DNA of 50,226 bases from assembly GCA_903895195.1 (NCBI GenBank), contig CAITSZ010000048.1, forward strand, positions 1 through 50,226, given 5' to 3'. The position numbers and the translations under genes are program-made. The stretch comes from an uncultured Chlorobiaceae bacterium. Lineage in GTDB: Bacteria; Bacteroidota; Chlorobiia; Chlorobiales; Chlorobiaceae. Under the pieces are notes generated by a model. That model saw only the letters and a program-made list of their open reading frames with translations. It was not told where the DNA came from and ran no database searches. Shown in pieces: positions 27,723-29,995 of this stretch (the first letter of the stretch is position 1; each line of letters opens with the position of its first letter).

Positions 27723-28082
27723 TCAGGTCGGGTTTGTCGCCACAGCCCACTGGGGCGCGAGGGGGCCGCGCCACAAAAGGTGAAATGTAGCAGTTTCAGT
27801 TTTCAGAAACGGGGGCATTTGCGCTGCAACCTCAATAACCTCTCCGTCATCCAGAGGTATGGCGAGGTACAAACATGAATGTCCCCAGTTAAGCCCTGGT
27901 TCAAGATCGACAAATGCGATATGCCCATTCCATGGCATATCCATAGCCACGTCCCCTGCATGGAGCTGCTTAGAGGGACTTTTCAGGTTGTGATCCAGAT
28001 AGATAATCGCATTTTCAATACGATCAGCACCAAGGCGGTCACGGACTTTGTTAAGTATTCGCTCTTCAAGATTGGTCATCAT
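27723..28082 (-). CDS. Free-standing paralogue of the caspase-like protein's N-terminal domain (119 aa)
   Basis: 119 residues with no signal peptide or membrane segment. Residues about 54-93 (IAFVDLEPGLNW-GHSCLYL, then GEVIEVAAQMPPFL) align with residues 57-97 of the protease encoded just upstream (IMVFADDAPQYNW-SHPCRYL, then GEFYREVQAQFPPYL). Shared positions include Asn-Trp-x-His-x-Cys-x-Tyr-Leu, Gly-Glu, Glu-Val-x-Ala-Gln and Pro-Pro-x-Leu. The protein therefore looks like a detached copy of the protease prodomain. It could inhibit, activate or chaperone the protease, or form a hetero-complex with it; these are inferences. Its ATG overlaps the protease TGA as ATGATG, so translation is probably coupled. 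No known family recognised. Confidence 0.75.
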   Translation of the reverse strand: MMTNLEERILNKVRDRLGADRIENAIIYLDHNLKSPSKQLHAGDVAMDMPWNGHIAFVDLEPGLNWGHSCLYLAIPLDDGEVIEVAAQMPPFLKTETATFHLLWRGPLAPQWAVATNPT

Positions 28083-29452
28083 CCAAAGACTTTTTTGATG
28101 ACGGTGGTTAGGGCGGTTCTCAATTCAGCCTCCTGTCGAGCGGTTGCCTTACCCAGCTTCTCTTCGATAGGTTGCAGGTTTGGCAGGAGTTTTTCATTCA
28201 ATATAGCATAGAACTCCGGTATTGGCTTTCGCAGATAGTAAGGGTTAAGAATCTCGACCAGGATACGGCAGTAGATCGGCCAGATTATTCCGTAACGCTG
28301 TCCAAGGAAATAATTGCCAGCCGCTGCTGCTGATTCGCTATAGACTGGAGTGTCAGCAGCATTCTTAACTGCATTGGCATAGTTGTGTGCCTCCCTGGCC
28401 GAAACCTTTCCGGTTCCGTCCGTGTCAGGGTTTGATGCAAGGGCGCCTCCATTCGGGGTGTTACCTGTCATGGCAGCAATCCAGTCGCGGGCGAAAGGAT
28501 CGAAATCTGCGCCGCCGATGGAATTCTTTAACTCTTCGCAGGCGGACGAGACGCTGGTATAGGCGGCAGTTGAATGCGACAGTATAGGGCTGTTGAATCC
28601 GCCCGAATGGCATTGCTCCATCATCACCATCAGAGAGTTGAATTTTGGCAGTGTGGCAAGTTTGTCGGCAAATGCAGAGGCAAGATAATCCGCCCCACTG
28701 TAAGTGCAAAGGTAGGACTCGGTGCCGTTGTGCCCGCCATGATTGTTTGTGTGAATCAACAGCAGATCGTCGATTTTCAGTTTGGCTTTCAGGGTATCGA
28801 GTACTGTGTCCAGATCGGCTTTGGTGCCTTTGCCGTTTATCGGCATTCTATAAGCAGTGTTGTCTCCCGGCCAGTTCACCACCGGTTTCGGATTATCGTT
28901 GTAGTTGACTGAGCCATCATAGTTGAGAACATAGATATTCGCTGCAGGAAAGGCATAGATATCTCTCAAAGTCCTGTAGAGAAACTCAAGATCGTTTGTA
29001 TGGCGGTTGTTGGAAGCGCCCGAAAACAGCACTGCATAGCGTTGTCCTTTCGTCCAGCGGATTGGACAGCGCAGTATTGGACGGATGGGGAAATGGAGTC
29101 CAATATCCGTGATGCGAACAGGTTGGTGAAAAGCTTGAAATGTCTTCGGAGCATTGGCTGTAAGATATGGCGGAAACTGTGCCTGTACCTCACGATAAAA
29201 TTCACCGCTCTTGGCATCGTGCAGAAGGTAGCGGCAGGGGTGTGACCAATTGTATTGAGGCGCATCATCGGCAAACACCATAATGGTGTCGCGTTCGATC
29301 GGAATTTGTTGCTTGTAGGCAAGAATATTAGCTCCTTTTGTCAGAATAGTTGAATCTGAAAAAAGGTTGGTGGAGCGAACAGCCTTAAAAGAAAGAGTAC
29401 TTACAACCTTCGACTTGATTGCATCATGTAGTATGCCGGGTACAGTTTGCAT
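28079..29452 (-). CDS. Caspase/C13-like cysteine protease with EF-hand-like loop
   Basis: 457 residues. Residues 1-125 form a separate N-terminal domain (see the paralogue at 27723-28082). Residues about 138-390 follow the caspase-haemoglobinase fold: strand RYAVLFSGASNN, helix LEFLYRTLRDIYAFPAANIYVL, strand DDLLLIHTNNHGGHNG with the catalytic His238, and strand NSLMVMMEQCHSGGF with the catalytic Cys281. Next, DTDGTGKVSARE (343-354) fits the 12-residue EF-hand loop spacing (Asp1, Asp3, Gly6, Glu12), suggesting calcium control as in metacaspases. About 60 helical residues close the protein. No signal peptide or membrane segment was seen, so it should be cytoplasmic. The ribosome site AAGGAG lies 6 nt before the ATG. 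Targets are unknown. It is followed, with a 4-nt overlap, by the paralogue of its N-terminal domain. Confidence 0.8.
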   Translation of the reverse strand: MQTVPGILHDAIKSKVVSTLSFKAVRSTNLFSDSTILTKGANILAYKQQIPIERDTIMVFADDAPQYNWSHPCRYLLHDAKSGEFYREVQAQFPPYLTANAPKTFQAFHQPVRITDIGLHFPIRPILRCPIRWTKGQRYAVLFSGASNNRHTNDLEFLYRTLRDIYAFPAANIYVLNYDGSVNYNDNPKPVVNWPGDNTAYRMPINGKGTKADLDTVLDTLKAKLKIDDLLLIHTNNHGGHNGTESYLCTYSGADYLASAFADKLATLPKFNSLMVMMEQCHSGGFNSPILSHSTAAYTSVSSACEELKNSIGGADFDPFARDWIAAMTGNTPNGGALASNPDTDGTGKVSAREAHNYANAVKNAADTPVYSESAAAAGNYFLGQRYGIIWPIYCRILVEILNPYYLRKPIPEFYAILNEKLLPNLQPIEEKLGKATARQEAELRTALTTVIKKVFG

Positions 29453-29995
29453 GATAGTCTCCTTTTATTTTGATGTATCGGATTGATCGTGAAGTTTACC
29501 TCTGTGAAAAAAAACATTCGATCCTACGAACTGATAGAGTTCATCTTTGAAACAGTTGTTCCGGTCTCACCTCCTTCGGTTGCTGATATAAAAAAAACAT
29601 GCATTCCCAATTGCAGATCATTGCAGACAAGCGCATCCATTATGTGAGGGCTTTATTTACAGCTATCTCCTATACATGCGCTCTATTGCTTACTGATGAA
29701 ATCAAAAGAGAAGTTGGAACCGCGTAGTATATACTTATGAAATGTAAAGGTATCGGAAGGACTACCGGATGCGGGCGCAGCGACAGTATAATCAGGCCAT
29801 ACGGCAATGTATGCTCAACTTAAAAAGCAATACGGAGCTGAACAGCATGGTCTTTAATGCAATCAGAAATTCGTTAAAGCCTGTTTCTGTAAATATATAA
29901 GATAAGTGTATCAGCCTAATTTATGTGAAAAAAAACAAATTGCAAATAATTTCACAACGATAAAACCTTTTCGTCATCACAATATCCTTTTGGAC
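29453..29995. other. Intergenic region, no gene seen
   Basis: 543 nt between the caspase-like gene and the PhnA-like gene, both on the minus strand. AT-rich with stops in all frames; I saw no gene, RNA or repeat. It must hold the promoter of the protease gene near its left end. Confidence 0.55.

What the first reader, a model, noticed from the sequence alone, without database searches (positions are those of the whole stretch)
27723..29452. Caspase-like protease translated together with a free copy of its own N-terminal domain
The 457-aa protein has a His238/Cys281 dyad in a caspase/C13-like fold and an N-terminal domain of about 125 residues. The next gene, overlapping by ATGA, encodes only a paralogue of that N-terminal domain (shared Asn-Trp-x-His-x-Cys-x-Tyr-Leu, Glu-Val-x-Ala-Gln, Pro-Pro-x-Leu). 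A protease paired with a detached prodomain suggests an inhibitor or partner subunit controlling the protease, with stoichiometry set by coupled translation. This is seen in the sequence at the level of shared motifs; the control role is inference. I know of no described system of this form.
Basis: partly seen in the sequence, partly recalled or inferred. Interest (0 to 1): 0.78.

Follow-up and report, generated by a model that had tools for sequence, protein, structure and literature searches.

The report
Bacterial legumain-like protease with detached N-domain
A rare cell-interior protease related to plant and animal legumain is encoded next to a small protein that is a separate copy of the protease's own front domain, and this two-gene pair has been kept together across many bacterial phyla and some archaea, probably because the small protein holds the protease in check.

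Summary
The 457-aa protein is a C13 (legumain-family) peptidase with His238/Cys281 and a ~125-aa N-terminal domain. The next gene, overlapping by ATGA, encodes only a paralogue of that domain (BLASTP E 2e-9; profile-profile probability 99.9%, E 1e-31; same predicted fold from separate alignments). The domain is in no Pfam or NCBIfam family and has no confident PDB fold match. The pair is not local: 34 of 39 distinct loci of this protease subfamily, in eight named bacterial phyla and two archaeal lineages, carry both genes. Gene order flipped at least four times while adjacency persisted. Protease N-domains form one clade and free copies do not reject forming another, so this looks like one ancient split. 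Partnerless loci include a Cys-to-Ser mutant and a frameshifted protease. Most likely the free copy is a prodomain-like inhibitor of a cytosolic, probably Asn/Asp-specific protease, perhaps through an invariant Asn in an inter-strand loop; this is inference. A regulatory or activating heteromer is the main rival. The form is not without precedent: SpeB-Spi pairs a protease with a propeptide-analogue inhibitor. New variant of a known kind.

The parts
28079..29452 (-). Protease gene, 457 aa (stop codon 28079-28081): N-domain, C13 legumain-like peptidase domain, C-terminal helices
29078..29452 (-). N-terminal domain of the protease (residues 1-125); invariant D62, P65, N68, H71, C73, P94 in 36 family N-domains
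29249..29251 (-). Codon of Asn68, invariant, in the loop between predicted strands 56-62 and 73-79; candidate P1-mimic residue (inference)
28292..29050 (-). C13 peptidase domain (residues 135-387), legumain fold
29000..29011 (-). Asn148-Asn149-Arg150-His151; N148, R150 and H151 align with the conserved N-x-R-H of plant legumain (R150/H151 match the S1-pocket residues Arg44/His45 of human legumain)
28739..28741 (-). Codon of catalytic His238
28610..28612 (-). Codon of catalytic Cys281
28082..28282 (-). C-terminal helical region (residues 391-457); replaced by other tails in relatives (lectin-like repeats, FG-GAP repeats and others)
27723..28082 (-). Small gene, 119 aa (stop codon 27723-27725): free paralogue of the N-domain
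27888..27890 (-). Codon of Asn65 of the small protein, invariant in 32 free copies, in the loop between predicted strands 53-59 and 70-76
28079..28082 (-). ATGA overlap of protease stop and small-gene start (translational coupling inferred)
29456..29467 (-). Purine-rich ribosome-binding site (AAAAGGAGACT region) just upstream of the protease start
   Evidence: read directly from the sequence

Best explanation
The locus is a self-contained two-gene module: a cytosolic C13 (legumain-like) cysteine protease with an N-terminal domain, and a free paralogue of that domain. SHOWN by sequence: homology of the two domains, the catalytic and S1-pocket residues, conserved linkage across phyla, one ancient split of the two domain types, and no third conserved gene. 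INFERRED: the free copy binds the peptidase domain of its partner in trans, in the manner in which the attached N-domain docks in cis, and keeps the protease inactive until a signal, degradation of the free copy or a change in their ratio releases it. The protease keeps the legumain Asn/Asp-pocket residues, and both domain types keep an invariant Asn in a loop between two strands. A specific testable form is therefore that this Asn occupies the S1 pocket as a substrate mimic, as P1-Asn loops of cystatins and mycocypins do in legumain and as the P1-Arg loop of the gingipain prodomain does within clan CD. The protected process is unknown; a cell-damaging or externally deployed protease with a cognate immunity-like inhibitor fits the sporadic, horizontally mobile distribution.
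For: Both genes in 34 of 39 distinct loci of the subfamily, in Chlorobiota, Pseudomonadota, Chloroflexota, Thermodesulfobacteriota, Acidobacteriota, Bacteroidota, Actinomycetota, Tharpellota, Heimdallarchaeota and Methanomethylovorans, including cultured strains (Nitrosomonas, Elioraea, Paraburkholderia, Alloprevotella, Methanomethylovorans). Gene order changed at least four times with adjacency kept. Protease N-domains are one clade (100/99); the free copies held as one clade are not rejected (p 0.27). No other gene is conserved beside the pair. Partner lost at least four times; of five partnerless genomes, which lack it genome-wide, one protease has catalytic Cys281 changed to Ser (L030) and one is frameshifted after ~400 aa (L031), as expected if the partner matters only when the protease works. 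Generic C13 proteins in the phylum sample lack the domain and have no partner. The small protein is under purifying selection but changes 2 to 5 times faster than the protease (dN/dS 0.13-0.35 against 0.04-0.16). Legumain-type Arg, His and Ser of the S1 pocket conserved. Invariant loop Asn in both domain types. Precedents.
Against: No direct evidence of inhibition; every linkage and loss pattern also fits an obligatory activating or stabilising subunit. L024 has an apparently intact protease and no partner (MAG), and the L036/L038 lineage (Myxococcota, Cyanobacteriota) keeps catalytic residues without one. Asp, Pro, Trp and His of the motif are as conserved as the Asn, so the motif may be structural. 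The domain has no confident fold match to cystatin or any inhibitor. The position of the N-domain relative to the active site in the model could not be inspected.
Confidence: 0.5

Rival explanations
1. Obligatory heteromer: the free copy pairs with the N-domain of the protease (domain to domain) and forms a regulatory, activating or substrate-recruiting subunit, so that the working enzyme is a protease-small protein complex.
For: Same linkage, order-flip and co-inheritance evidence. A Bacteroidales protein carries two tandem N-domains followed by the C13 domain in one chain (L058), which suits two domains packing together; an inhibitor fused in tandem is also possible. Partner loss beside a Cys-to-Ser protease (L030) fits an activator equally well.
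Against: L024 and the L036/L038 lineage keep intact catalytic residues with no partner in the genome. Generic C13 proteins in the same phylum do without both domain and partner.
Confidence: 0.32
2. Adaptor domain of the effector-associated (EAD) type: the domain is a homotypic recruitment module and the free copy a bridging or decoy adaptor in a defence or cell-death system.
For: EADs are small domains at protein ends, coupled to peptidases, with a second copy often in the adjacent gene (PMC7159879, PMC8195603).
Against: EAD copies in one locus are described as closest to each other; here protease N-domains form one clade apart from all free copies, 100/99. No NTPase, vWA, GAP1 or STAND core or other effector is conserved nearby, the free copy carries no effector, and no PADLOC model matches.
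Confidence: 0.08
3. The small protein is a substrate or chaperone of the protease: it is cleaved, for example after its invariant Asn, to release a product, or it helps folding.
For: Invariant Asn in a predicted loop and conserved legumain-type pocket.
Against: The same Asn is invariant in the protease's own N-domain, and cleavage would fall in the middle of a compact fold; linkage and ancient co-inheritance give no preference for it.
Confidence: 0.1

Closest known systems
SpeB-Spi of Streptococcus pyogenes (C10 streptopain with adjacent propeptide-analogue inhibitor)
   Same: Cysteine protease gene next to a gene for a separate analogue of its propeptide; two-gene unit.
   Different: Papain-type clan and a different domain family; SpeB is secreted; narrow distribution. 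Here clan CD/C13, no signal peptide on either window protein, and the pair is spread over bacteria and archaea.
Staphopain-staphostatin and Bacteroides Bfp-Bfi pairs
   Same: Cysteine protease co-encoded with a small protein taken to be its specific inhibitor.
   Different: Those small proteins are lipocalin-like or staphostatin-like and do not resemble the propeptide; here the partner is homologous to the protease's own N-domain.
Legumain (C13) with its C-terminal prodomain, and its inhibitors cystatin E/M and mycocypins
   Same: Peptidase fold, catalytic residues and S1-pocket Arg/His/Ser; inhibitors act through an Asn in a reactive loop.
   Different: Legumain's inhibitory domain is C-terminal and helical; the extra domain here is N-terminal, alpha+beta, and unrelated by sequence.
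Gingipain RgpB N-terminal prodomain (C25)
   Same: Clan CD; N-terminal domain inhibits by inserting a P1-like residue in S1 (works-like comparison).
   Different: No detached copy is described; different sequence, P1 specificity and location.
Effector-associated domains (EADs)
   Same: Small domain shared by a peptidase and an adjacent gene.
   Different: Free copy is bare, no core NTPase system, and the domain types separate by role, not by genome.

Membership tests
Peptidase family C13 (legumain) | Significant match to the C13 profile | tested here: met
   PF01650 E 1.3e-9, 38.4 bits against a cut-off of 22.8
Peptidase family C13 (legumain) | Legumain fold of the catalytic domain | tested here: met
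   Predicted model, Z 25.5, 225 residues, rmsd 2.6 to human legumain
Peptidase family C13 (legumain) | His-Gly and Glu-x-Cys catalytic motifs and S1 Arg/His | tested here: met
   NHGG, MEQC, NxRH aligned with plant legumains; invariant in nearly all 38 homologues
Peptidase family C13 (legumain) | Asn/Asp-specific peptidase activity | not testable with these tools
   Needs an enzyme assay
Protease plus detached propeptide-analogue inhibitor (SpeB-Spi kind) | Adjacent gene homologous to the protease's own N-terminal region | tested here: met
Protease plus detached propeptide-analogue inhibitor (SpeB-Spi kind) | The attached region is a propeptide removed on activation | not testable with these tools
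   Needs maturation assay
Protease plus detached propeptide-analogue inhibitor (SpeB-Spi kind) | The small protein inhibits the protease | not testable with these tools
   Needs binding and inhibition assay
Protease plus detached propeptide-analogue inhibitor (SpeB-Spi kind) | Membership of the C10/Spi sequence family itself | tested here: not met
   No Pfam family matches the small protein or the N-domain, and the catalytic domain is C13, not C10
Cystatin fold | Confident structural match to a cystatin | tested here: inconclusive
   Stefin B only at Z 3.8, below the noise level; no Foldseek match under E 0.6
Effector-associated domain (EAD) system | Copies in one locus closest to each other | tested here: not met
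   All protease N-domains form one clade apart from the free copies, 100/99
Effector-associated domain (EAD) system | Conserved core NTPase or effector gene in the operon | tested here: not met
   No third family conserved beside the pair

The most novel reading that the evidence does not exclude
A previously undescribed domain family, in no Pfam or NCBIfam model and without a confident known fold, is both the cis N-domain and the trans inhibitor of prokaryotic legumain-like proteases, using an invariant Asn loop against an Asn-specific enzyme; the pair arose once, long ago, and spreads as a unit between bacteria and archaea as a toxic-protease/immunity-like module.
Probability: 0.3. Interest if true: 0.8.

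Novelty: new variant of a known kind. Interest (0 to 1): 0.62.

Why it matters
Prokaryotic members of the legumain family are almost unstudied: no paper describing them was found in the searches made here. This gives them a genetically linked, unannotated partner (it has no gene call on the Methanomethylovorans plasmid), predicts their specificity and a control mechanism, and supplies matched protease-partner pairs from many phyla, including cultured strains, for a simple in vitro test. If the partner inhibits, it is a prodomain-derived protease inhibitor in clan CD encoded in trans and a possible source of specific inhibitors of Asn-endopeptidases and Asn ligases.

Tried and rejected
Viral and phage origin: no relatives in IMG/VR or the phage records. 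Known defence system: no PADLOC match. Known fold for the small domain: PDB and viral structure searches gave only noise-level matches; that does not show a new fold. Recent local duplication: rejected by the tree. Third component of the operon: none conserved. Alternative partner in the partnerless lineage L036/L038: adjacent genes differ between the two and are not N-domain homologues. Promoter and terminator scans near the pair are at chance level and no Rfam element lies in the window.

Full report
OBSERVATION. On the minus strand, a 457-aa ORF (28079-29452) is followed by a 119-aa ORF (27723-28082) with an ATGA overlap. The larger protein matches Pfam Peptidase_C13 (residues 138-303, E 1.3e-9); no NCBIfam or PADLOC model matches either protein, and phmmer against the PDB finds plant legumains. 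A model predicted from 38 homologues (pLDDT 88.9, pTM 0.87) superposes residues 135-388 on human legumain at Z 25.5. His238 and Cys281 align with the legumain His and Cys, Asn148 with the Asn of the legumain N-x-R-H motif, and Arg150, His151 and Ser311 with conserved legumain residues; in human legumain Arg44, His45, Ser216 and Asp231 form the Asn/Asp-selective S1 pocket (PMC4357240). Arg150, His151 and Ser311 are invariant in the 36-row set and Asp318, the likely Asp231 equivalent by position only, is at 97%. Asn/Asp specificity is therefore predicted, not shown.

The small protein is homologous to residues 8-97 of the protease: BLASTP E 2e-9, whole-genome reciprocal only-other-hit, and profile-profile probability 99.9%, E 1.3e-31. 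Its model, built only from other small proteins (pLDDT 89.1), has the same order of elements as the protease N-domain. Neither Pfam nor the PDB fold library has a confident relative of this domain.

DISTRIBUTION. The pair is rare and patchy: of 61 genomes around the window's (37 of its own genus, the window's included), two hold it; in 394 genomes of the phylum, five Chlorobiaceae genomes hold it, all with both genes; 1 of 274 in the class of Nitrosomonas oligotropha. One scan of 85,000 species genomes found 60 loci, and a plasmid of Methanomethylovorans hollandica carries the pair with the small gene unannotated. I built profiles of both domains and read every locus. In the cytosolic subfamily (window, L010, L011-L046 and L104, 39 distinct loci) 34 have the protease with its N-domain and the free copy adjacent. 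The scan's patterns could favour N-domain carriers, so I also counted only loci recognisable by a catalytic-domain motif: 26 of 30 have the partner. Generic C13 proteins in the same phylum lack the domain and have no partner, so the partner goes with the domain.

HISTORY. In the N-domain tree all protease N-domains form one clade (100/99); free copies held together as one clade are not rejected (AU p 0.27), and many subclades of the two mirror each other. The window pair groups with Propionivibrio, Methylococcaceae and Nitrosomonas, while the other Chlorobiaceae pair groups with Acidobacteriota and Actinomycetota, so the pair moves horizontally as a unit. On the protease tree the gene order changed at least four times; overlapping or abutting junctions are found in both orders, while other loci have gaps of tens of nucleotides. 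Nothing else beside the pair is conserved. Both genes are under purifying selection, the small one evolving 2 to 5 times faster.

EXCEPTIONS. Five genomes lack the partner anywhere in the assembly. L030 has catalytic Cys281 changed to Ser and L031 is frameshifted after about 400 residues. L024 looks intact, and L036 and L038 form their own deep lineage with catalytic residues kept. The two damaged cases fit a partner needed only by a working protease; they do not tell an inhibitor from an activator, and two cases are few.

A SECOND, SECRETED SUBFAMILY. In L047-L070 (mostly Bacteroidales, Verrucomicrobiota and relatives) the same domain precedes a more distant C13-like domain in long proteins, most with signal peptides. 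A Prevotella locus (L048) pairs a lipoprotein-like free copy with such a protease, so where both are present the partners share a compartment; one Bacteroidales protein (L058) has two tandem N-domains and the C13 domain in one chain. Rumen Prevotellaceae (L067, L068) have solitary secreted copies.

MECHANISM. The evidence establishes a functional pair. I judge trans inhibition by a prodomain-like copy most likely (0.5): it has a direct precedent in SpeB-Spi (PMC2873492), N-terminal prodomain inhibition by a P1-mimic loop has a precedent in clan CD (gingipain), and legumain inhibitors of two unrelated folds use an Asn loop (PMC9579014). The domain has an invariant Asn (65 in the small protein, 68 in the protease) between two predicted strands, where model confidence dips slightly. 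Neighbouring Asp, Pro, Trp and His are equally invariant, so the Asn-in-S1 idea is a specific test, not a finding. The main rival (0.32) is an obligatory heteromer formed by the two homologous domains.

COMPARISON AND NOVELTY. The catalytic part is an ordinary C13 member by every test possible here. As a protease paired with a detached copy of its own N-terminal region it works like SpeB-Spi but is not a member of that sequence family. It fails the relatedness and context criteria of effector-associated domains. Literature searches for bacterial C13 or legumain-like proteases with partners found nothing describing it; the library is open-access only. I rate it a new variant of a known kind.

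Noticed in passing
L058:7659-10853 (+): Bacteroidales protein with two tandem copies of the N-domain followed by a C13-like domain in one chain: a natural fusion of what is elsewhere two genes.
   Followed up: partly
L047-L070: A second, secreted subfamily carries the same N-domain before distant C13-like domains; L067 and L068 (Prevotellaceae) have solitary secreted free copies with no protease nearby.
   Followed up: partly
L104:5872-6306 (-): In Chlorobiaceae genome G546 the small protein has a signal-peptide-like N-terminus if its GTGA-overlapping start is used, while its protease has none and ends in lectin-like repeats.
   Followed up: no
L009:8679-10736, L042:8354-10726, L010:7971-10382: The protease's C-terminal tail is swapped between relatives: lectin-like propeller repeats, FG-GAP repeats, or an Ig-like region ending in a Cys-rich motif resembling Ada-type zinc sites (the last from memory, not tested).
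   Followed up: partly
L011:10213-11622 and L038:657-2171: A homologous DUF7689/CHAP-like protein (34% identity) lies beside the system both in a Chlorobiaceae genome and in a partnerless Microcystis genome.
   Followed up: partly
NC_019972.1 (L010:7585-7920): The small gene of the pair on the Methanomethylovorans hollandica plasmid is not annotated.
   Followed up: yes
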